NCBI GenBank assembly: GCA_012729115.1
Contig: JAAYDR010000003.1
Coordinates: forward strand, 1 to 60,222
Direction: 5' to 3'
DNA: 60,222 nt
Source: Clostridiales bacterium
GTDB taxonomy: Bacteria; Bacillota; Clostridia; Christensenellales; Aristaeellaceae
The notes below the pieces were generated by a model. The model was not told the origin of the DNA. It saw nothing but the letters and a program-made list of their open reading frames with translations, and searched no databases. Positions 3,555-13,246 of this stretch are shown piece by piece. The position numbers and the translations under genes were made by a program. The number at the start of each line of letters is the position of its first letter. Positions within the stretch are counted from its first letter, which is position 1.

Positions 3555-5327
3555 ATGGGAAAGATTGTGAAGGTTTCCGGGCCTCTTGTCACCGCCGAGG
3601 GGATGAACGAGGCCAAGGTGCAGGATGTCTGCCTGGTGGGCGAAAAGGGGCTCATTGGCGAGATCATCGAAATGCGGGGCAACGTGGCCTCGGTGCAGGT
3701 GTATGAGGAGACCTCAGGCCTCATGCCCGGAGAGCCGCTGGTAAGCACCGGCGAGGCGCTGTCCGTTGAACTGGGCCCGGGCATTGTGGCCCAGATGTTT
3801 GACGGAATTCAGCGTCCTTTGGATGCCTTCCGTGAGGCGACGGGCAGCAACTACCTGGTGAAGGGCATTCACCTGCCGCCCCTCAATCGGGAAAAGAAAT
3901 GGCGGTTTGTGCCTGCGGTCAAAGCCGGGGACGCGGTCCAGGATGGCGACATCCTGGGCACAGTGGCCGAGACAGCCGCAATCATCCACAAGATCATGGT
4001 GCCTCCGGGTGTGAGGGGCACAGTGGCTTCCATCCAGGAGGGGGACTTCACCATTGAGGAGACGGTCTGCACCCTGCAGACTCCCCAGGGAGAAAAAGCC
4101 CTCACCATGCTGCAAAGGTGGCCTGTTCGCCGGCCCCGGCCTGTAGCAGAAAAGAAAAATCCGGACGCGCCCTTTGTGACCGGCCAGCGGGTCATCGACA
4201 CCCTGTTTCCTGTCCTCAAGGGCGGCACGGCGGCAGTGCCCGGCCCCTTTGGCGCGGGCAAAACCGTGGTGCAGCACCAGATTGCCAAATGGAGCAATGT
4301 GGATTTGGTGGTCTATGTGGGCTGCGGCGAGCGGGGCAATGAGATGACCGACGTGCTCATCGAGTTCCCCCAGATCATGGACCCGGGCACCGGGCGGTCC
4401 ATCATGGAGCGCACCATCCTCATTGCCAACACCTCCAACATGCCCGTGGCAGCCCGTGAAGCCTCCATCTACACCGGCATCACCATTGCCGAATACTTCC
4501 GGGACATGGGGTATCATGTGGCGGTCATGGCGGATTCCACCTCCCGCTGGGCGGAAGCGCTGCGTGAAATGTCCGGACGGCTGGAGGAAATGCCCGGTGA
4601 CGAGGGCTACCCCGCCTATCTGGGCAGCCGTATTTCCAACTACTATGAGCGGGCAGGCCAGGTGGTTGCCCTGGGCAGGGACGGCCGCACCGGCAGCATT
4701 ACGGCTATAGGCGCCGTATCCCCTCCGGGCGGAGACATGGCGGAGCCTGTGACGCAAAACACCCTGCGGGTGGTCAAGGTGTTCTGGGGTCTGGATGCCA
4801 CCCTGGCCCGGCAGCGCCATTTCCCGGCCATCCACTGGCTTACCTCCTATTCCCTGTATTCGGACCAGGTGCGAGCTGCTGTGGACAGGCAGTTGGGCAT
4901 GCCCTGGAGCGAGATGGTGATGGAGGTTATGGAAATCCTCCACGATGAGGCCAGGCTGGAAGAAGTAGTCCGGCTGATTGGCATGGATTCCCTCTCCGAC
5001 AAGGACCGTCTCAAGCTGGAGGCTGCCAAGTCCATCCGGGAAGACTACCTGCAGCAGAACTCCTTTGATGAAAACGACAGTCACTCCTCTTTGCTCAAGC
5101 AGGCCAAGATGCTGGAAAACATCCTCCTGTTCGCCCACCTGGCCGCCAAGGCCCGTGAGGCGGGCATCCGCTATCATCGCATCATGCGGGAAACAGAGGA
5201 CATCCGGGACCGCATCGCCCGCAGCAAGTACATCCCCGAAGAGGAGCTCCACCGGATGGACGCCGTCAAGGAATCCATCCTTCAGATAATGAACGGGCTG
5301 ATGGCCAAGGAGGCGGAAGCGGAATGA
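3555..5327 (+). CDS. ntpA: V-type ATPase catalytic subunit A
   Basis: Catalytic ATP-hydrolysing or ATP-synthesising subunit of the A3B3 head. It has 590 residues, the normal length. The P-loop GPFGAGKT lies near residues 229-236, preceded by the beta-barrel domain and the subunit-A-specific non-homologous insert (about residues 110-200). [19 protein letters not shown] and the [10 protein letters not shown] stretch are family signatures. The stop overlaps the start of subunit B (ATGA at 5324-5327). No defects seen. Confidence 0.99.
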
Positions 5328-6724
5328 TTAAGGCCTATCGCAGCATTCGGGAAGTGGTCGGCCCGCTGATGGCCGTGGACCATGTGTCCGGCGTCATGTA
5401 TGACGAGCTGGTGGAAATCCACCTGCAAAACGGGGATGTCCGCCGGGGTCAGGTGCTGATGGTGGACGGAGACAGGGCCCTGGTGCAGATCTTTGAGGGC
5501 ACCGGCGGCATCAACCTCCAGGAGAGCAGCGTCCGGTTTACCGGCCAGCCCATGATGCTCCCCGTATCCAGGGAGATGCTGGGCCGGGTTTTCGACGGCC
5601 TGGGCCGGCCCAAGGACGGCGAACCTCCCGTCATTGCCGAAAAGATGCTCAACATCAACGGCGAAGCCATCAACCCCATCGCCAGGGACTATCCCGACGA
5701 GTTTATCCAAACAGGCATCTCCTCCATTGACCAGCTCAACACGCTGGTGCGCGGGCAGAAGCTTCCCATCTTCTCCGCAGCGGGCCTGCCCCATCAGCAG
5801 CTGGCTGCCCAGATTGCCCGCCAGGCCAAGGTGCTGGGGGATGACAGCCAGTTTGCCGTGGTGTTCGCGGCCATCGGCATCCCCTTTGAAGACGCCTCCT
5901 TCTTTATGGAAAACTTCCGGGAAAGCGGTGCGCTGGCCCGTTCGGTGCTCTACTTGAACCTGGCCAGCGACCCGGCCATGGAGCGGATTGCAACCCCCAA
6001 GATGGCGCTCACCACGGCGGAATACCTGGCCTTTGAGCTGGACATGCACGTGCTGGTCATCATGACCGACATGACCAACTACTGCGAGGCCCTGCGGGAA
6101 ATCTCCGCCGCCCGCCGGGAAGTGCCGGGCCGCCGGGGTTATCCCGGCTACCTGTACACCAACCTGTCCACCATCTATGAGCGGGCAGGCCGCATCAAGG
6201 GCAAGAAGGGCTCTGTAACCCAGATTCCGATTCTGACCATGCCTGAAGGAGATATCACCCACCCCATCCCCGATTTGACAGGCTACATCACCGAAGGCCA
6301 GATCATCCTCTCCCGGGACCTGCACGATGCGGGCATTGCGCCCCCCATTGATGTGCTGCCCTCCCTGTCACGCCTGAAGGACAAGGGCATCGGCAAGGGC
6401 AAGACCCGGGAAGACCACGCCCCCACCATGAATCAGCTGTTCAGCGCCTACGCCCAGGGCAAGAAAGCCACGGAACTGGCGGTGGTGCTGGGTGAGTCGG
6501 CCCTGTCCGAAGTGGACAAGAAGTTTGTGGCCTTTGCCCAGGAGTTTGAGAAATCCTATGTAAACCAGGGCTATGGGGTCAATCGCACCATCCAGGAAAG
6601 CCTGGACCTGGGCTGGAAACTGCTTGCCATGCTTCCCAGAGGCGAACTCAAGCGCATTCAGGAGGACATGCTCAGGCAGTATCTCCCCCAAGAGGAGGAA
6701 GGGGCATGGCAAGACTCAATGTAA
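5324..6724 (+). CDS. ntpB: V-type ATPase subunit B
   Basis: Non-catalytic nucleotide-binding-fold subunit that alternates with A in the head. It has 466 residues, the normal length. The P-loop is degenerate, as expected ([15 protein letters not shown]). Other signatures are [39 protein letters not shown] and [19 protein letters not shown]. The last 19 bp overlap the start of subunit D. Confidence 0.99.
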
Positions 6725-7323
6725 CGCCCACGCGCATGGAGCTTTCCCGGCTCAAGGACCGGCTGACCGTTTCCGTGCGCGGGCACAAGCTCCTCAAGGA
6801 TAAGCAGGACGAGCTGGTGCGTCAGTTCATCGCTCTGGTGCATGAAAACCGCCGCCTGCGTGCCCTGGTGGAGGACGCGCTGGCACAGATCGCCCAGGAA
6901 AGCATCCTGGCAGGGAGCGCTCATTCCCAGGAAGAGATCAGCAACGCCTTCCTGTACCGGCAGAGCCCCTGGACCGTGGAAATCGCGGAAAAAAACCTGA
7001 TGGGCTTTTCCGTTCCTTCCATGACCTCTGTAAAATCGGACGCTGTTGAGCGGGAGGGCCTGTGGGCCCCCAGCCCGCCCCTGTCCCAGGCAGCATTGCG
7101 CATGCAGGTGCTGGTTCCCAAACTGCTGGAGCTGGCTCAGGTGGAAAAAACCTGCATGCTGCTTTCCCAGGAGATTGAGAAGGTTCGCCGCCGGGTGAAC
7201 GCCCTGGAGTACATGACCATCCCTCAGCTCAAGGAAACCATCCGCTACATCAAAATGAAGCTGGAGGATACCGAGCGGGAAGGCATCATCCGCATGATCA
7301 AGGGAAAAAGCTACAGCCAGTAG
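6706..7323 (+). CDS. ntpD: V-type ATPase subunit D (central shaft)
   Basis: Central rotor shaft, 205 residues. It is a long two-helix coiled coil; the N-terminal [16 protein letters not shown] and C-terminal [18 protein letters not shown] are hallmarks of the family. The Shine-Dalgarno GAGGAAGGGG lies just before the ATG. It is the last gene of the operon; a perfect hairpin terminator begins 23 bp after the stop. Confidence 0.97.
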
Positions 7324-7346
7324 GCATCTGCCTCCTGGAGCATAAA

Positions 7347-7390
7347 AGGACACCGCTTCTGGTGCAGTATTGTTTCAGAAGCGGTGTCCT
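7347..7390. terminator. Bidirectional rho-independent terminator
   Basis: A perfect 14-bp inverted repeat (7347-7360 with 7377-7390) with a 16-nt loop. On the plus strand it is followed by GTTGTTTTCC. On the minus strand the stem is followed directly by TTTTATG. It can therefore end both the V-ATPase operon and the convergent minus-strand group that ends at 7486. Confidence 0.88.
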
Positions 7391-7485
7391 GTTGTTTTCC
7401 TGAAAGCATTGTATTTTCATCAGGCAGCTCATAAAGCCAGGAATGGAAACTGTGACTGTTAGCCTTGATGGCGAGGACAGGGTGT

Positions 7486-8049
7486 TTACATTTTCGCGAG
7501 ATCGCTCTTCCCGCGCAGCATCATGGTCTGTGTCCATAAAAAGACGCCCACGCCCATGAAACAATCGCCGATGCTGACCACGCCGGGGATGCCCCACGCC
7601 AAGGGGATCGCGTCGCCAAGCCACCAAAGCGGCGCGTCCCAGCCGACCAGTTTGTATTCCAGAAGCTCACCGCTGGCCACCCTGGCCACAAATTCCTTCA
7701 GCGCCTCAATGTCAAGCGCAGCCGGGCTCACAGGCATCCTCATCTGGTGGAAGGCCATGGCGCACACGTTGAGTGCCGTGCCCGCGGCCAGGAGCCACAG
7801 GGCGCTCTCGTCCCGATTGAGCCACAGAAAAACAAACAGAAGGGCATATTCCACGCATACGGCCACCCAAAGCCAGCGCAGCGGATCGCCGGGGATCCAT
7901 TCTCTCATCTGGCCAAAAGCCGCCTCCAGCAGGAAGGCGACGATTGGCCAACCAAGCCCGCGCAGCGGCTTTTGCATATACCCGCGCAGGCGACCTCCCC
8001 GCATGTAACCAATCAGCAGGGACAGGATCAGAAAGTAAACGAGCAGCAT
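7486..8049 (-). CDS. DUF5317-like integral membrane protein
   Basis: 187 residues with about five hydrophobic segments, two of them at the N-terminus (LLVYFLILSLLIGYMRGGRL). The overall pattern resembles proteins I know as DUF5317, whose function is unknown. An extracytoplasmic or cytoplasmic loop holds MRMPVSPAALDIEALK. It lies 26 bp downstream of the HD-GYP gene and is very probably co-transcribed with it. No catalytic motif is visible. The family assignment is from memory of the sequence pattern and was not checked. Confidence 0.7.
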   Translation of the reverse strand: MLLVYFLILSLLIGYMRGGRLRGYMQKPLRGLGWPIVAFLLEAAFGQMREWIPGDPLRWLWVAVCVEYALLFVFLWLNRDESALWLLAAGTALNVCAMAFHQMRMPVSPAALDIEALKEFVARVASGELLEYKLVGWDAPLWWLGDAIPLAWGIPGVVSIGDCFMGVGVFLWTQTMMLRGKSDLAKM

Positions 8050-8075
8050 GCGGCTTCAGCCCTCTCTTTGCGGCG

Positions 8076-9353
8076 TCAGATGGCATCTTCGCGGATCAGT
8101 TTGACCATCACCTCCACGACGGCGGGGTCAAACTGCGTTCCGCTTCCCTTGCAGAGTTCCTCGATCGCCATGTCCACAGGGATGCCCTTGCGGTAGGGGC
8201 GTTCGCTCGTCATGGCGTCAAAGGCGTCGGCTACGCCCATGATGCGTGTGGCCAGAGAGCACTCGCCGATGGGCTTGCCGTTGGGGTAGCCGCTGCCGTC
8301 GTAGCGCTCGTGGTGGCTCTGGATAATCTCCACCACGCGCTCATCCAGCCCGACCTTCGCCACGATCTCCGTGCCGATGGTGGGATGCTGTTTCATAACC
8401 ACCCATTCCTCGGCGGAGAGAGGGCCGTTCTTGTGCAGAATCTGGTCGCTCACGCCGATCTTGCCGATATCGTGCAGCAGCGCACCCTCGCGCAAAAGCG
8501 CGATATCCTTGTCCTTCATGCCCATCTGGCGGGCGATCTTCTCGGTGTAATCGGCCACGCGCGTGCTGTGGCCCTGCGTATAGGCGTCCCGCGCCTCGAT
8601 GGCGGATATGAAGGCCGTAATGAGCTCGTCCTTATGCCGTGAGGTATCAAGGTACAGCTTCCACGCGTAGCGCGCCAGCATCAGTGGACAGATCAGGATA
8701 AGCGTCAACCAGCCGCCCATGGGCTGGGCAAGCACCAGCGCGATGATCAGCCCCAAGGGCATTGCCGCGATCACGTTGGTGCTGAGCCCCAGCAGAATCT
8801 TGAATGCCTCCCGCAGGCCCATGTCGCCGTTCAGGTAGAACATAAGCAGCAGGATGAGGTAATTGAGGAAGAACGCCAGCAGCGAGAACACCAGCGTGGG
8901 CAGCAGCACCATGGGGAACGACAGGTCGCCGGGCTGCCACGGCAGCAGGCGGCAGATCAGCCCCGGCACGAGGATGGCGATCATGATGTTGGCGGTGTTA
9001 AAGAAGGTCTTGACAGGGCTGATGTTATAGATACTGTGGACCGTGCCGTCTGATTGCCGCTCGAAGGTGATCAGCGAGCTGACAGCGTACACGACCATCG
9101 CCATCGCCGTGCCGTGCATCATAAAAGCGGACAGGATGGCAAGCACGGAAAGATCCAGTCCCTGATCCTTGCGGATGGTGATGGGGAAGGATCGGCAAAG
9201 CGCGCACAGCCCGATCAGAAAAAGAAGCTGCCAGCCATACACCCGGAAGGGAATGCCTTGGAGACTAACAAAATACTTCCAGCAGCATACAACCATTGCG
9301 AGCATGCCAAGGGCGGAAACGATCGCTATATAGATGCGCGCCCTTCTCGTCAT
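8076..9353 (-). CDS. Membrane-bound HD-GYP domain phosphodiesterase
   Basis: Probable cyclic dinucleotide phosphodiesterase or related signalling hydrolase. Residues 1-210 form a membrane sensor region with about six helices of the MASE type. The rest is an HD-GYP domain: AYTQGHSTRVADYTEKIA, the metal-binding LLHDIGKIG near residue 295, HHERYDGSGYPNG with the GYP signature near residue 355, and ADAFDAMTSERPYR. An ATG at 9357-9359 would give 427 residues, but AAAGAGG abuts it directly. That Shine-Dalgarno is 6 nt from the ATG at 9351-9353, so I prefer the 425-residue form. It lies downstream of the peptide gene and upstream of the DUF5317 gene. The ligand sensed is unknown. Confidence 0.9.
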   Translation of the reverse strand: MTRRARIYIAIVSALGMLAMVVCCWKYFVSLQGIPFRVYGWQLLFLIGLCALCRSFPITIRKDQGLDLSVLAILSAFMMHGTAMAMVVYAVSSLITFERQSDGTVHSIYNISPVKTFFNTANIMIAILVPGLICRLLPWQPGDLSFPMVLLPTLVFSLLAFFLNYLILLLMFYLNGDMGLREAFKILLGLSTNVIAAMPLGLIIALVLAQPMGGWLTLILICPLMLARYAWKLYLDTSRHKDELITAFISAIEARDAYTQGHSTRVADYTEKIARQMGMKDKDIALLREGALLHDIGKIGVSDQILHKNGPLSAEEWVVMKQHPTIGTEIVAKVGLDERVVEIIQSHHERYDGSGYPNGKPIGECSLATRIMGVADAFDAMTSERPYRKGIPVDMAIEELCKGSGTQFDPAVVEVMVKLIREDAI

Positions 9354-9397
9354 AAACATCCTCTTTCTGCCGATGATACGTGATCGGGCCTTTATAG

Positions 9398-9608
9398 GAA
9401 AACAACCCGGCCAATCGAGGTTACCCCTTTATACTACTTCCAGGTCGCAAAGGCGCCAGCGGAAAGAAGGAAAGAAGCGATAGCCATCAGGGCCGCCATG
9501 ATCTTAGCCTTTTTCATCGTGAATATAGCCTCCTGTACACAGGCTGTGCCATACGCTAACAGACACGCTATATTCCGCTTCGCTTGATGATTGGGCCGGG
9601 TTGTTTTC
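9398..9608. repeat. 18-bp inverted repeat enclosing the small peptide gene
   Basis: gaaaacaacccggccaat at 9398-9415 is matched by its reverse complement at 9590-9608, with a single extra G in the right arm. The arms lie exactly in the two gaps on either side of the 27-residue peptide gene and are 174 bp apart. They could be paired protein-binding or recombination sites, or the closing stem of an RNA structure around the peptide message. No further extension of the pairing was seen on either side. Confidence 0.85.
9434..9517 (-). CDS. Small 27-residue hydrophobic peptide
   Basis: An ORF of 27 codons that begins MKKAKIM and ends GAFATWK. It has a basic N-terminus, a hydrophobic core of about 16 residues, small residues before the tail, and a short ATWK end. 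A full AGGAGG (9529-9534) lies 11 nt before the ATG. It reads like a signal peptide with a four-residue tail, or a tiny membrane peptide that could be processed into a signal. It sits between the uncharacterised protein gene and the HD-GYP gene on the same strand and is enclosed by an inverted repeat. No homologue is recognised with certainty. Confidence 0.65.
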   Translation of the reverse strand: MKKAKIMAALMAIASFLLSAGAFATWK

Positions 9609-9628
9609 TTTCGTTGGGTAAGGGGGGG

Positions 9629-10312
9629 TCAGTCCTCCGCCACCACTTTGGCCAGGCAGCGGTTGAGCGCGTCCAGCGTGCTCTTGACAAAACCCATTGC
9701 GGGATCGTCCTCCTGGTGCGCCGCGCCGATCAGCAACTGCTCGCCGTGATCGCCCGCATATTCCAGCACGGTAACGGCGATAGGCACAGAGCCCACGGAC
9801 GTGGCTTGCGCGGCTACGAGAGAGAAAATCCCGTCCCTGTTGAAAAACTGATGCACCGCGTTCAGCGTGGCCTGAACGATCGCGTGGACGCGACGCGAGG
9901 GCGTGTAGCGGCAGGAGTCCTCCCCCACCAGATCCCGGTCGTCGGCTCTCAGGTGAACGCTCACATGGTAGTTATCGGCCTCCACGCCGCTTTGCACGCC
10001 CATGCATTGCAGCCGAAACCCCGGCAGCGCTTCCGCGGGACACGGAGCGGAGGCGGCAAAGGGGTTCTCGCCCAGTTGTGCGATGCTGATGATCCTGTGA
10101 TCCACCTGCAGATCAAAGGCCGCCAACAGCGCGGATTGTACATCGCGGCTGATCTGCTTGGGGTTACGCGCTCGGCTCGCCACGATATGGATCTCTCGCA
10201 CCGCCTCGTCCTCGCCGGGCAGTACGGTTGCCGCGTAAACGCCGGGGAGCTTCGTCAGCAGGGAACGGTATTGGATCAACTGCGCCTGAGAACTCTCCGC
10301 TTGATCGATCAT
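9629..10312 (-). CDS. Uncharacterised protein, first gene of the HD-GYP group
   Basis: 227 residues, soluble, with no signal peptide or membrane segment. The N-terminal part has an alternating strand/helix pattern around EIHIVASRARNPKQISRDVQ and DHRIISIAQL, reminiscent of small regulatory alpha/beta (ACT-like) folds. A second half with VSVHLRADD and ATLNAVHQFF has a similar rhythm, so an internal duplication is possible. The Shine-Dalgarno GCGAGG lies 7 nt before ATG 10312, and a sigma-A type promoter is just upstream. It leads the minus-strand group with the peptide, HD-GYP and DUF5317 genes. Function unknown; I do not assign one. Confidence 0.75.
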   Translation of the reverse strand: MIDQAESSQAQLIQYRSLLTKLPGVYAATVLPGEDEAVREIHIVASRARNPKQISRDVQSALLAAFDLQVDHRIISIAQLGENPFAASAPCPAEALPGFRLQCMGVQSGVEADNYHVSVHLRADDRDLVGEDSCRYTPSRRVHAIVQATLNAVHQFFNRDGIFSLVAAQATSVGSVPIAVTVLEYAGDHGEQLLIGAAHQEDDPAMGFVKSTLDALNRCLAKVVAED

Positions 10313-10350
10313 ACGTAATCCTCGCTTTTCATCATATCGGTATGCTAGTA

Positions 10351-10379
10351 AGTATACAACGATTATGAGTTAGCCGCAA
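10351..10379 (-). promoter_or_regulatory. Probable sigma-A promoter for the HD-GYP group
   Basis: On the minus strand TTGCGG (10374-10379), a 17-bp spacer and TATACT (10351-10356). Transcription would start near 10344, about 30 nt before the first ATG of the group. Confidence 0.6.
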
Positions 10380-10551
10380 CGCCTGTGTCGTCATTTTTCA
10401 CTATCAATATAAATGCCTGAATACAAACCGGAAATCATTCGGTTAACAGGCCATAGTTGACTTTTGCTTTCTCATTGAAACAGGATCACTTTACAAGAAA
10501 CATTTCAATCCACAGCGAAACAAAGTTGCTTTCTGTGTTTCAAACCTTGCG
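10380..10551. other. Intergenic region between livF and the HD-GYP group
   Basis: AT-richer spacer downstream of livF. It holds two weak hairpins: attgaaa at 10475 pairing with tttcaat near 10503, and gaaaca near 10517 pairing with tgtttc near 10536. Neither has a clear T-run on the minus strand, so the livF terminator is not identified with confidence. Confidence 0.35.
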
Positions 10552-11280
10552 CTAAGCTTTCTTCCGGCCTGTCTTTCCCAAATAAGCCTCCTGTACGCTT
10601 GTATCTTGCAGGAGCGCCTCCCCTGTACCCTCCAGGGTAATCCGCCCTGTTTCCATCACATAGGCATAATGGGCGGTATGAAGGGCGGCGTTTGCGTTCT
10701 GTTCAATGAGCAAAATGGTAATGCCCTCTCCGCTCAGGCGCTTTATGATGGAAAAGATATCTTTGACAACCAGCGGCGCCAAGCCCAGGGAAGGCTCATC
10801 CATCATCATGATCCTGGGGCGGGTCATCAGGGCGCGGCCTACCGCCAGCATCTGCTGCTCGCCGCCGGATAGGGTTCCGGCCATCTGCCAGCTCCGTTCC
10901 TTAAGCCGTGGAAAAAGGGAGTAAACGTACTCCACGTCCTGCGCAATCTGCGCCGTATCCTTACGCATATACGCGCCGATTTTCAGGTTTTCAAGCACCG
11001 TCAAATTGGGGAATACCCGACGGCCTTCGGGAACTAATGCTATTCCCTGCTCCACGATTTTTTGCGTATCCTTGCCCGTTATGTCCTGCCCTTGATAAAA
11101 AACCGTGCCGCTTTTAACGGGGGTAATGCCCGTGATGGCCCGAAGAGCCGTGGACTTGCCCGCTCCATTTGCGCCGATAAGGGTCACAATCTGCCCCTCT
11201 TCCACGGAAAAGGAGATCCCCTTGAGGGCTTCAATGCCGCCGTAGCTGACCACCAAATCCTGCACTTGCAAAAGGCTCAT
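10552..11280 (-). CDS. livF: Branched-chain amino acid ABC transporter ATP-binding protein LivF
   Basis: One of the two ATPases of a HAAT-family importer. It has 242 residues, the normal length. Walker A is GANGAGKST, the signature LSGGEQQMLAVGRAL, and Walker B IMMMDEPSLGLAP; VPEGRRVFPNLTVLENL is typical of LivF. It starts in the stop of livG (4-bp overlap at 11277-11280) and is the last gene of the operon. Confidence 0.97.
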   Translation of the reverse strand: MSLLQVQDLVVSYGGIEALKGISFSVEEGQIVTLIGANGAGKSTALRAITGITPVKSGTVFYQGQDITGKDTQKIVEQGIALVPEGRRVFPNLTVLENLKIGAYMRKDTAQIAQDVEYVYSLFPRLKERSWQMAGTLSGGEQQMLAVGRALMTRPRIMMMDEPSLGLAPLVVKDIFSIIKRLSGEGITILLIEQNANAALHTAHYAYVMETGRITLEGTGEALLQDTSVQEAYLGKTGRKKA

Positions 11281-12128
11281 TCCTCATCCACCCCCAAATA
11301 TGCGGCAATTACATCCGGATTGCTCTGCACCTCCCGAGGCGTACCCTCGGCGATCAGCTTGCCAAAATCCAGGACGTAAATGCGATCACTGATATCCATG
11401 ACCAGATTCATATGATGCTCGATCAGGAAGACCGTCAGGCTGAACTGTTCCTTGATCTGGCGGATAAAATCGCTTAAATCCTCCGTTTCCTGTGGATTCA
11501 TGCCTGCGGCGGGTTCATCCAGAAGGAGGAGCCTGGGCTGGGTTGCCAGTGCACGGATGATTTCCAGATAACGCTGCTTGCCATAGGGCAAAGAGCTGGC
11601 GGGTTCATCTTTCACATCCGTCATATGCAGCATTTCCAGAAGATCAAGGGTTTCATGGCGGATCCGCTTTTCCTCCTGATGGTTGAGCATAAACGTAGCG
11701 CTGAGCATCCCGGCCTTCAGGCGCATGTGCTTGGCGATAAGCACATTTTCAAAGACAGTCAGATTCTTGAAAAGCCGGATATTTTGAAAGGTACGCGCTA
11801 CGCCCATTTGCGTGATCTGATCCGGCGTGTGGGAGATGAGCTTTTCGTATTCTCCCAGCTGCGAGCCCGCGTACAGGCTGCGCATCTTTCCCGTGGGATG
11901 ACCCTGCGCGATGGTTTTGCCCCGAAGCCGCACGCAGCCGTTGGTGGGTGCGTATACCCCCGAAACCACGTTGAAGACCGTTGTTTTCCCGGCGCCATTG
12001 GGGCCGATCAGGGCTACAATTTCATCCTTTTCAATGTGCATGGAAAAGCTGTCCACAGCCACCACGCCTCCAAACTGCATGGTTACATTTTCCAGCTCCA
12101 AAGCACGGTACTCCATTTTATTGCTCAT
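11277..12128 (-). CDS. livG: Branched-chain amino acid ABC transporter ATP-binding protein LivG
   Basis: Second ATPase of the importer, 283 residues, slightly longer than LivF as usual. Walker A GPNGAGKTT, LPYGKQRYLEIIRALATQP as signature region, Walker B LLLLDEPAAGMNP, and the LivG-type VARTFQNIRLFKNLTVFENV. It overlaps livM by 4 bp at its start and livF by 4 bp at its end, which argues for coupled translation. Confidence 0.97.
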   Translation of the reverse strand: MSNKMEYRALELENVTMQFGGVVAVDSFSMHIEKDEIVALIGPNGAGKTTVFNVVSGVYAPTNGCVRLRGKTIAQGHPTGKMRSLYAGSQLGEYEKLISHTPDQITQMGVARTFQNIRLFKNLTVFENVLIAKHMRLKAGMLSATFMLNHQEEKRIRHETLDLLEMLHMTDVKDEPASSLPYGKQRYLEIIRALATQPRLLLLDEPAAGMNPQETEDLSDFIRQIKEQFSLTVFLIEHHMNLVMDISDRIYVLDFGKLIAEGTPREVQSNPDVIAAYLGVDEE

Positions 12129-13246
12129 GCTTTTTTCCTCCTGTTCGGAAGCCTTTTCAGTAAGCTCTTCCAGGTTTCCGGCAGAAGGAAGTTCCAGTTA
12201 AACTCCCGGGAACCCATGAGGCCTCTGCTGTAAAAAAGCACCACGACCATCAGCAAAAGGGAGAAGATTACCATGCGCAAACCGGTGCGGAAGAAGGGCA
12301 CCTCCCAACCCCAAAGGGTGAGCGGCTGGTCGAAAAAGCGCAGCCACCACTCCTTGCTGGCGGTCATCAAAAATGCGCCAAGGATGCTGCCGGTCATGCT
12401 GCCGATTCCACCGATGACCACAATGAGCAAAATATCATAAGTGAGGCTGATAGAAAAGGTCTTGGCCTCGATGGAACGCATAAACATGGCCAGCATGCCG
12501 CCGGCGATGGCGGTGAAGAAGGAGGATGTTACAAAGCTCATTGCCTTGTGCTTGAGAAGGTTGATCCCCATGGCCTCAGCCGCCACCTCGTCCTCCCGTA
12601 TGGCCTTAAACGCCCTGCCATAGCTGGAGCGAAGCAGCAATACCATAATGGCAATGCACACTGCGGCGATCAGAAAGGGAGAAAGGATGGAGGCAAAGCC
12701 GGGAATTTTATTCAGGCCGTAAGAGCCGTTGGTCACCGTGTCCAGCTGTGGGCTGGCAAGGATGGCGCGGATAATCTCCGAAAATCCCAGCGTGGCAATG
12801 GCCAGATAGTCACTTTTCAGCCGCAGTACGGGAAAGCCTATGAGCGCGGCAAAAGCCGCCGCTACCAGGCCGCCGATCAGCAGCGCCAGGTAGGGATAGG
12901 ATGCGGCGACCCATGAGGGCGCGGTATCCAGCCATTGGCGGAAGGCCTTGATGGAGGGTGCGATGCCATTCATGTAATAAACGCCGTCCAGGTTTTTGGT
13001 GGGGATGGTCAAAAGGGCGGTGACATACGCGCCGATGGCCATAAAGCCCGCCTGCCCCAAAGAAAACAGACCCGTAAAGCCGTTGAGAAGGTTCATGGCG
13101 CATGCGACCACGGCCAGAATGACGCTTTTTTGCAGGATCGAAATCAGCATGCCGTGGTTGGCTTTGTTGGCCTCAAGGCTTGTGAGCCACGCAATCAAAA
13201 GGGTGGAGGCAATGAGGGTTGCAATCCATGGAATTCCTTTTTTCAT
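12125..13246 (-). CDS. livM: Branched-chain amino acid ABC transporter permease LivM
   Basis: Inner permease with about nine to ten membrane helices, 373 residues. Hallmarks are LNGFTGLFSLGQAGFMAIGA near the N-terminus and KSDYLAIATLGFSEIIR and GRAFKAIREDEVAAEAMGI in the cytoplasmic loop region. The C-terminal tail is basic (RLPNRRKKA). It lies 6 bp after livH. Confidence 0.96.
   Translation of the reverse strand: MKKGIPWIATLIASTLLIAWLTSLEANKANHGMLISILQKSVILAVVACAMNLLNGFTGLFSLGQAGFMAIGAYVTALLTIPTKNLDGVYYMNGIAPSIKAFRQWLDTAPSWVAASYPYLALLIGGLVAAAFAALIGFPVLRLKSDYLAIATLGFSEIIRAILASPQLDTVTNGSYGLNKIPGFASILSPFLIAAVCIAIMVLLLRSSYGRAFKAIREDEVAAEAMGINLLKHKAMSFVTSSFFTAIAGGMLAMFMRSIEAKTFSISLTYDILLIVVIGGIGSMTGSILGAFLMTASKEWWLRFFDQPLTLWGWEVPFFRTGLRMVIFSLLLMVVVLFYSRGLMGSREFNWNFLLPETWKSLLKRLPNRRKKA

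What the first reader, a model, noticed from the sequence alone, without database searches (positions are those of the whole stretch)
7486..10312. Four-gene signalling group: unknown protein, tiny peptide, membrane HD-GYP enzyme, DUF5317-like protein
Directly visible: four same-strand genes behind one promoter, among them a 27-codon ORF with a full AGGAGG. A sensor-type HD-GYP protein next to a secreted-looking or membrane-embedded peptide suggests that the peptide is a ligand, cofactor or product of the system. The first gene, of unknown function, and the DUF5317 protein could make, process or export it. I know of no described system with this make-up; that is inference and may reflect limited knowledge.
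Basis: partly seen in the sequence, partly recalled or inferred. Interest (0 to 1): 0.78.

Follow-up and report, generated by a model that had tools for sequence, protein, structure and literature searches.

The report
RNA-gated microprotein with membrane HD-GYP enzyme
A 27-residue membrane-type peptide with its own structured RNA sits beside a membrane signalling enzyme of the HD-GYP kind in many related bacteria; peptide and RNA are conserved and matched nothing known in our searches, so the cell probably makes a dedicated small partner or regulator for that enzyme.

Summary
On the minus strand lie an unknown soluble protein (UNK, 227 aa), a 27-aa peptide, a membrane HD-GYP protein (427 aa) and DUF5317 (187 aa). 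Relatives show more. Of 89 UNK genes followed by the HD-GYP gene, 87 have a 20-31 aa peptide ORF of one family (consensus ...LVLAGGAN[FY][KR]W) in between; of 23 UNK genes without it, none has. The peptide is under purifying selection (pN/pS 0.30). Its Shine-Dalgarno lies inside a covarying three-way-junction RNA (AGCGNAGCGG core, UAGCG loop) without an Rfam match. A long-range helix pairs the flanks of RNA plus ORF in 79 of 88 loci, often with a U-rich end. Outside the window's family the cassette often sits between hpf and secA. Most likely: a membrane microprotein dedicated to the HD-GYP sensor, its translation gated by the RNA, possibly through UNK. Function is inferred; a cis-acting leader peptide is a real rival. 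A SecM-type secretion monitor does not fit so short a peptide.

The parts
9629..10312 (-). UNK, 227-aa soluble protein of unknown function; alpha-beta N part plus (beta-beta-beta-alpha)x2 C part in the model
9594..9608 (-). 5' arm of long-range helix P0 (gaaaacaacccggcc)
9518..9586 (-). three-way-junction RNA element with AGCGAAGCGG core (9584-9575) and UAGCG loop; P1, P2 and P3 enclose the Shine-Dalgarno
9529..9534 (-). Shine-Dalgarno AGGAGG of the peptide, within P3, the junction and P1 of the RNA element
9434..9517 (-). 27-aa peptide MKKAKIMAALMAIASFLLSAGAFATWK
9398..9412 (-). 3' arm of P0 (ggccgggttgttttc), between the peptide stop and the HD-GYP start
8076..9359 (-). membrane HD-GYP protein, 427 aa; hydrophobic N part about 1-240, HD-GYP domain about 245-424 with HD at 296-297 and GYP at 357-359
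7486..8049 (-). DUF5317 protein, 187 aa, hydrophobic

Best explanation
The peptide is a real, dedicated membrane microprotein of the membrane HD-GYP protein. N-terminal Lys/Arg, a hydrophobic stretch with an A-G-G-A packing motif, and an aromatic, usually Trp-containing end suggest a short helix with its N-terminus in the cytoplasm and its aromatic end at the outer membrane interface. It would sit against the membrane part of the HD-GYP protein (or of DUF5317) and set the activity of this presumed cyclic-dinucleotide phosphodiesterase. Its synthesis is gated by the RNA in front of it: with the three-way junction folded the Shine-Dalgarno is hidden, with it open the peptide is made. The long-range helix around RNA and ORF, with its often U-rich end, would end or process most transcripts after the peptide, so that peptide is made in excess over HD-GYP. 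Shown by sequence: the peptide family, purifying selection, RNA pairing, the long-range complementarity, co-occurrence. Inferred: membrane placement, contact with HD-GYP, the switch and its signal, termination or processing.
For: Peptide in 87 of 89 UNK-HD cases (78 by filter; 9 more by eye), 0 of 23 UNK cases without HD, 14 of 851 controls. Among 20 further DUF5317 loci, the 3 with this HD-GYP gene before DUF5317 and sequence to judge have it (L236, L241, L248); the other 16 apart from L239 (cut at the contig start) do not, bar one unrelated-looking ORF on the other strand of L229. The one UNK-HD locus without it (L037) lacks DUF5317 and has HD changed to RD. pN/pS 0.30 over 22 non-overlapping pairs, pN below pS in 21 of 22. 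Of 88 peptides 83 have no acidic residue and 87 a net positive first nine residues; 85 of 87 anchored tails have an aromatic residue, 65 a Trp. RNA: 16 of 17 pairs with double changes, 84.8% of cells paired, covariation score 0.430 against at most 0.097 for slid controls; 60 of 60 checkable matches end within 30 nt of the peptide start on the same strand; no Rfam match. P0: 79 of 88 loci score at least 26 against 9.1% of cross-locus pairings. Nine GGDEF matches in the own genome make cyclic-dinucleotide signalling plausible. L236, without the RNA core, has a plain hairpin with a T tract after the peptide (by eye).
Against: No experiment shows translation, membrane location or binding. Three peptides (L182, L183, L198) have only 20 residues and cannot easily span a membrane. 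The conserved C-terminal end next to the stop codon and a terminator-like P0 arm a median 12 nt further would also fit a leader peptide that acts only in cis. P3 is weak in the wider set (63.8% of cells paired), 30 of 93 sources gave no RNA match at E 0.5, and some loci (L083, L098, L155, L156, L158) seem to have lost the UAGCG loop (by eye). RNAalifold alone gave another structure, and the single-sequence fold of the window pairs the P2/P3 region differently. A helix closing about 216 nt would be an unusual terminator. The substrate is unknown: the closest solved HD-GYP by sequence is a 3'3'-cGAMP-specific enzyme (5z7c). The membrane part of HD-GYP could not be modelled (mean pLDDT 55.7).
Confidence: 0.55

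Rival explanations
1. Cis-acting leader peptide (attenuator). Translation of the short ORF, perhaps with stalling near its conserved Trp or stop codon, decides whether the P0 helix forms and whether transcription or translation goes on into HD-GYP, DUF5317 and, in many genomes, secA. The peptide itself has no later role.
For: The stop codon lies a median 12 nt before the P0 3' arm, and 36 of 79 arms end in at least 6 T of 8 against 5 of 88 shuffled controls. The best conserved residues are near the C-terminus. 20-aa versions keep the tail but lose the hydrophobic stretch. secA follows in 37 of 70 loci.
Against: Stop-to-arm distance varies from 0 to 64 nt. N-terminal charge and hydrophobic stretch are also conserved. 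The peptide stays with HD-GYP where secA is not near: in the window's family secA follows in 0 of 12 loci, yet the peptide is kept.
Confidence: 0.25
2. Secreted short signal: the peptide is a signal sequence cut near the AGA/GGA, and the released tail of a few residues is a pheromone sensed by the HD-GYP membrane domain.
For: The peptide has the layout of a signal sequence and a possible signal-peptidase site (S-A-G-A before F in the window). Counted from after the second small-motif glycine, so mostly with one alanine, tails have 4 to 7 residues in 78 of 87.
Against: The -3 residue would be G in most relatives (AGGA), a poor site by the recalled -3,-1 rule. Tails vary between close relatives while the hydrophobic part stays. 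No curated peptide or pheromone family over cut-off.
Confidence: 0.1
3. Type-I-toxin-like or dual-function small RNA: a hydrophobic peptide mRNA with paired ends and a hidden Shine-Dalgarno, harmful to the membrane when translated.
For: Small hydrophobic peptide, buried Shine-Dalgarno and 5'-3' end pairing recall toxin mRNAs (resemblance from memory).
Against: Kept at one place beside HD-GYP across many families; one RNA copy in the own genome. No antisense RNA was searched for.
Confidence: 0.06

Closest known systems
HD-GYP phosphodiesterases with solved structures (5z7c, 4mcw, 4r8z)
   Same: Catalytic domain with HD and GYP motifs, E 8e-48 to 1e-21
   Different: The matches cover only the catalytic domain (query from about 241); I know of no dedicated microprotein gene for them. 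The best match is named a 3'3'-cGAMP-specific enzyme, so the substrate here is open
Small transmembrane regulators of membrane signalling enzymes, such as MgrB with PhoQ (recalled)
   Same: One short hydrophobic protein encoded for a membrane sensor
   Different: Partner here would be an HD-GYP protein, and the mRNA has a conserved structured RNA; eight peptides had no curated match over cut-off (weak ones below cut-off to LptM, YoaJ and MgtS, E 0.05-0.12)
Sec/YidC monitoring arrest peptides SecM, MifM, VemP (PMC10987492, passages seen)
   Same: Short ORF with a hydrophobic stretch upstream of secA in many genomes
   Different: The published search asks for more than 30 residues between localisation signal and end of the conserved C-terminal sequence; here the whole peptide has 20-31. 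The peptide stays with HD-GYP where secA is absent
Downstream-peptide RNA motif of cyanobacteria, RF01704 (PMC2864571, passages seen)
   Same: A structured RNA in front of a conserved short ORF
   Different: Different hosts; the element here has no Rfam match

Membership tests
HD-GYP phosphohydrolases | HD domain with HD and HHExxDGxGYP motifs | tested here: met
   HDIGK at 296-300, HHERYDGSGYP at 349-359; PF13487 E 4e-34
HD-GYP phosphohydrolases | Hydrolysis of c-di-GMP or cGAMP | not testable with these tools
   only GGDEF presence in the genome seen
DUF5317 | Score over Pfam cut-off | tested here: met
   90.2 bits, cut-off 25
Known RNA families (Rfam 15) | Match to a family model | tested here: not met
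   window 7000-11000, E up to 10: six weak matches, none at the element; 12 relatives at gathering score: five tRNAs only
Sec/YidC monitoring arrest peptides | More than 30 residues between localisation signal and end of the C-terminal conserved sequence | tested here: not met
   88 peptides have 20-31 residues in all; criterion from PMC10987492
Sec/YidC monitoring arrest peptides | Encoded upstream of secA, secDF or yidC | tested here: inconclusive
   secA after DUF5317 in 37 of 70 loci, 0 of 12 in the window's family; secDF and yidC not looked for
Sec/YidC monitoring arrest peptides | Translation arrest | not testable with these tools
   needs a toeprint or in vitro translation
AgrD-type or other curated peptide families | Match to a curated Pfam or NCBIfam model over cut-off | tested here: not met
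   window peptide; eight typed peptides; no Cys in 84 of 88 peptides
Type I toxins | Toxic peptide repressed by antisense RNA | not tested
   no expression data; resemblance recalled only

The most novel reading that the evidence does not exclude
A new regulatory module. UNK, a LeuA-like or RNA-binding-like protein, senses a ligand and binds a previously undescribed three-way-junction RNA. That switches translation of a membrane microprotein, which in turn controls a membrane HD-GYP phosphodiesterase. Through its place between hpf and secA in many genomes it would tie cyclic-dinucleotide turnover to ribosome hibernation and protein secretion. In its favour: in 36 of the 37 genomes with an RNA match the match lies just 3' of UNK, and the one HD locus without a detected UNK that could be checked (L236) also lacks the RNA core. 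Against: UNK also occurs without this RNA or peptide (23 cases).
Probability: 0.2. Interest if true: 0.9.

Novelty: new variant of a known kind. Interest (0 to 1): 0.75.

Why it matters
Peptides of 24-30 residues are easily skipped by gene finders. Here one is kept with one signalling enzyme across many families of a phylum, together with an RNA element that matches nothing in Rfam. If the reading holds, it gives a dedicated microprotein for an HD-GYP enzyme (the first known to me), a new RNA switch, and a testable link between cyclic-dinucleotide signalling, secretion and ribosome hibernation. It also gives UNK and DUF5317, both of unknown function, a defined context.

Tried and rejected
Riboswitch of a known class: rejected, no Rfam match. 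General metabolite riboswitch: less likely, because the RNA occurs once in the own genome and almost only at this locus (36 of 37 genomes with a match, read; the exception is G207:C20 at E 0.06). Secretion monitor of the SecM type: rejected on length. Enzyme role for UNK: no family over cut-off, one weak PDB sequence match (E 0.18). UNK fold: the top Foldseek match is LeuA of M. tuberculosis (E 2e-5, TM 0.40, rmsd 8.9), then double-stranded-RNA-binding proteins (E 1e-4 to 1e-3, TM 0.17-0.22); too weak to assign. The model rests on 3 sequences (pLDDT 80.5, pTM 0.62). HD-GYP model: low confidence, not searched.

RNA controls that went against or were neutral: the single-sequence fold of the window element (z -3.5; 1 of 200 shuffles as low) has P0 and P1 but pairs the P2/P3 region differently. 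RNAalifold alone predicted another, 11-pair structure on the first alignment. My three-helix structure came from reading the aligned sequences and was then counted. A4, A5 and A9 were fitted to it by the model and lean towards it. On A3, a plain MAFFT alignment, 6 of 17 pairs show double changes (7 of 500 shuffles as many), 89.3% of cells pair against 31-45% for slid versions, and the number of further pair types is no more than in shuffles (134 of 500 as high). On A9 6 of 500 shuffles reach the 16 pairs with double changes. P0: the score allows G-U and one mismatch, and the threshold 26 was set after seeing the scores. Cross-locus pairings have median 18.5 and 95th percentile 28.0, observed median 32.5. 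Many arms share a GGCCGAC-like core, so the 77 distinct arms are not 77 independent changes. In a first test with a narrower search region 74 of 88 exceeded all of 20 mononucleotide shuffles.

Literature: searches showed no paper on DUF5317 (0 papers hold the word) or on this cassette; the library is open-access only and I looked at listings. Passages, not whole texts, were seen of PMC6429828, PMC2864571, PMC2965389, PMC10987492 and PMC7897499.

Limits of the survey: the 99 phylum loci with UNK that I used come from the better-scoring part of the list, not at random; lower-scoring UNK matches were mostly not examined. Loci dropped: L024 (same record as L022) and L103 (wrong place, no UNK). Contig ends cut L032, L075, L153, L154, L178 and L183; these 6 of 118 cases count neither as HD nor as the 23 without HD. 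L183 still shows the whole peptide and is one of the 88. L033 and L034 are near-identical.
Full report
What is there. The HD-GYP protein has an N-terminal hydrophobic part and a complete HD-GYP domain; DUF5317 scores well over its Pfam cut-off; UNK and the peptide match no curated family over cut-off. The own genome has four matches to the HD-GYP protein, and only this one covers the membrane part. Nine GGDEF matches make cyclic-dinucleotide signalling plausible. The substrate is open: the closest solved HD-GYP by sequence is named a 3'3'-cGAMP-specific enzyme.

Relatives. UNK was found in 16 of 150 genomes of the window's family, the own one included, and with a profile in 162 of 398 genomes of the phylum (113 of 267 genera). 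The phylum is presumably Bacillota: the two named relatives are Eubacteriales and Clostridiales MAGs. I examined 118 UNK matches in 116 of 117 fetched loci, the window among them. HD-GYP is the next gene in 89. Where HD follows and at least 2600 nt are held, DUF5317 is found in 75 of 80.

The peptide. A mechanical filter (18-45 codons, Shine-Dalgarno, hydrophobic, small-residue motif) finds a peptide in 78 of 89 UNK-HD cases, in 0 of 23 UNK cases without HD and with at least 1500 nt of sequence, and in 14 of 851 control stretches. By eye, 9 of the 11 misses also have a family member with a slightly different motif (L026, L029, L030, L102, L145, L174, L180, L182, L198). The two left are the first UNK of a tandem pair (L073, peptide after the second) and L037, whose HD-GYP gene follows directly, is not followed by DUF5317 and has RD in place of HD. 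The 88 complete peptides have 20-31 residues, mostly 24-28. Aligned on the small-residue motif, 72 of 87 have G at the first motif glycine, 69 of 87 at the second, and 65 of 87 have Trp in the tail. Over 22 non-overlapping pairs (65-97% identical, equal length) pN is 0.100 and pS 0.331, ratio 0.30, with differences by codon position of 65, 48 and 144; pN is below pS in 21 of 22. So the ORF is constrained as protein.

What the peptide goes with. I fetched 20 further DUF5317 loci, from genomes without a UNK match or with a second DUF5317 copy. Four have the membrane HD-GYP gene before DUF5317: L236, L241 and L248 have a peptide, L239 starts at a contig end. In the other 16 the scan found one ORF, on the other strand of L229 and unrelated-looking. 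L241 begins 35 nt before its peptide and L248 has UNK-like pieces in two frames, so only L236 is a clear case without UNK. The peptide therefore follows the membrane HD-GYP gene rather than UNK or DUF5317 alone.

The RNA. Upstream of the peptide lies a conserved element: AGCGNAGCGG, helix P1, hairpin P2 with UAGCG[GA] in its loop, GAG, a small hairpin P3, then the Shine-Dalgarno inside P3 and P1. On the plain MAFFT alignment of 15 loci 89.3% of cells pair and 6 of 17 pairs show changes on both sides. On the 63 matches of model R2 among 93 sources it is 84.8% and 16 of 17; the covariation score is 0.430, with none of 500 shuffles as high and at most 0.097 for slid structures. P2 is 98.4% paired, P1 86.0%, P3 63.8%. 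All 60 matches that could be checked end within 30 nt of the peptide start on the same strand; 3 lie at contig ends. The AGCGNAGC core is in 76 of 88 loci against 1 of 88 shuffled. The own genome holds one copy. In the phylum search 37 of 398 genomes had a match at E 0.1 or better, 36 of them just 3' of UNK by reading the tables; this search used strict filters and misses divergent copies. No Rfam match at the element.

The long-range helix. Between the region just after UNK and the region just after the peptide stop there is a helix P0, mostly 11-20 bp. In the window gaaaacaacccggcc (9608-9594) pairs with ggccgggttgttttc (9412-9398). 79 of 88 loci reach score 26, against 9.1% of pairings between different loci (null 95th percentile 28.0, observed median 32.5); the 79 have 77 different 5' arms, many with a GGCCGAC-like core. 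The element from arm to arm has a median 216 nt; the 3' arm starts a median 12 nt after the stop codon (0-64); 36 of 79 arms end in at least 6 T of 8 against 5 of 88 controls; the window has 5 of 8. The window's RNA folds at -81.7 kcal/mol, z -3.5, with P0 formed. L236, which lacks a detected UNK and the RNA core, has a local hairpin with a T tract right after the peptide (by eye), as if P0 were replaced by a plain terminator.

Context. Outside the window's family the cassette often lies between a gene like hpf and secA (labels recalled from sequence). By tblastn with one HPF and one SecA sequence, hpf precedes in 20 of 42 loci with at least 900 nt upstream and secA follows DUF5317 in 37 of 70 with at least 500 nt downstream, on the same strand wherever found; in the window's family it is 0 of 12 and 0 of 12. 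These are lower bounds. The own genome's secA match is on another contig. The link to HD-GYP holds without this context.

Mechanism. Committed reading: a membrane microprotein for the HD-GYP sensor, with translation gated by the three-way junction and excess synthesis through P0. UNK may be the protein that reads the RNA: it is encoded just upstream, the RNA is almost only next to it, its predicted fold (pLDDT 80.5) ranks near LeuA and RNA-binding proteins, weakly, and the one clear HD locus without a detected UNK lacks the RNA core. That last point is a single case, and UNK also occurs without the RNA. The main rival is a cis-acting leader peptide. A secretion monitor of the SecM kind does not fit by length: the published search asks for more than 30 residues between signal and the end of the conserved sequence (PMC10987492, passages).

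Novelty. Peptide, RNA and UNK match no curated family tested, and the paper searches named under Tried and rejected showed nothing on them. The parts resemble known kinds (small membrane regulators, Shine-Dalgarno-masking leaders, HD-GYP enzymes), so I rate it a new variant of a known kind with high interest.

Noticed in passing
L092 and L104, just 3' of UNK: UNK copies without HD-GYP stand directly before an 86-aa gene that looks like spoVS (name recalled), in genomes with two and three UNK matches; no peptide found there.
   Followed up: partly
L236, 2100-2530: HD-GYP and DUF5317 locus without a detected UNK: peptide kept, RNA core absent, a promoter-like TTGACA...TATATT upstream and a plain hairpin with a T tract after the peptide (by eye).
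   Followed up: partly
L082, L094, L100, L106 upstream of the peptide: The AGCGNAGCGG core occurs twice, or nearly so, in some genomes (by eye).
   Followed up: no
L070, L073, L077, L086, L089: A second HD-GYP domain gene lies between the membrane HD-GYP gene and DUF5317.
   Followed up: no
own genome G000:C108, 295-3776 (L229): A second DUF5317 gene about 2 kb upstream of a protein with GGDEF and HD domains in one open frame of 577 aa.
   Followed up: no
control genomes: DUF5317 also matches in Thermotoga maritima and Thermus composti, 2 of 14 control genomes.
   Followed up: no
window 5324-7323 (+) and 10552-13246 (-): The cassette is flanked by genes that look like V-type ATPase subunits and branched-chain amino-acid ABC transporter genes (names recalled), not by hpf and secA as in other families.
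   Followed up: partly
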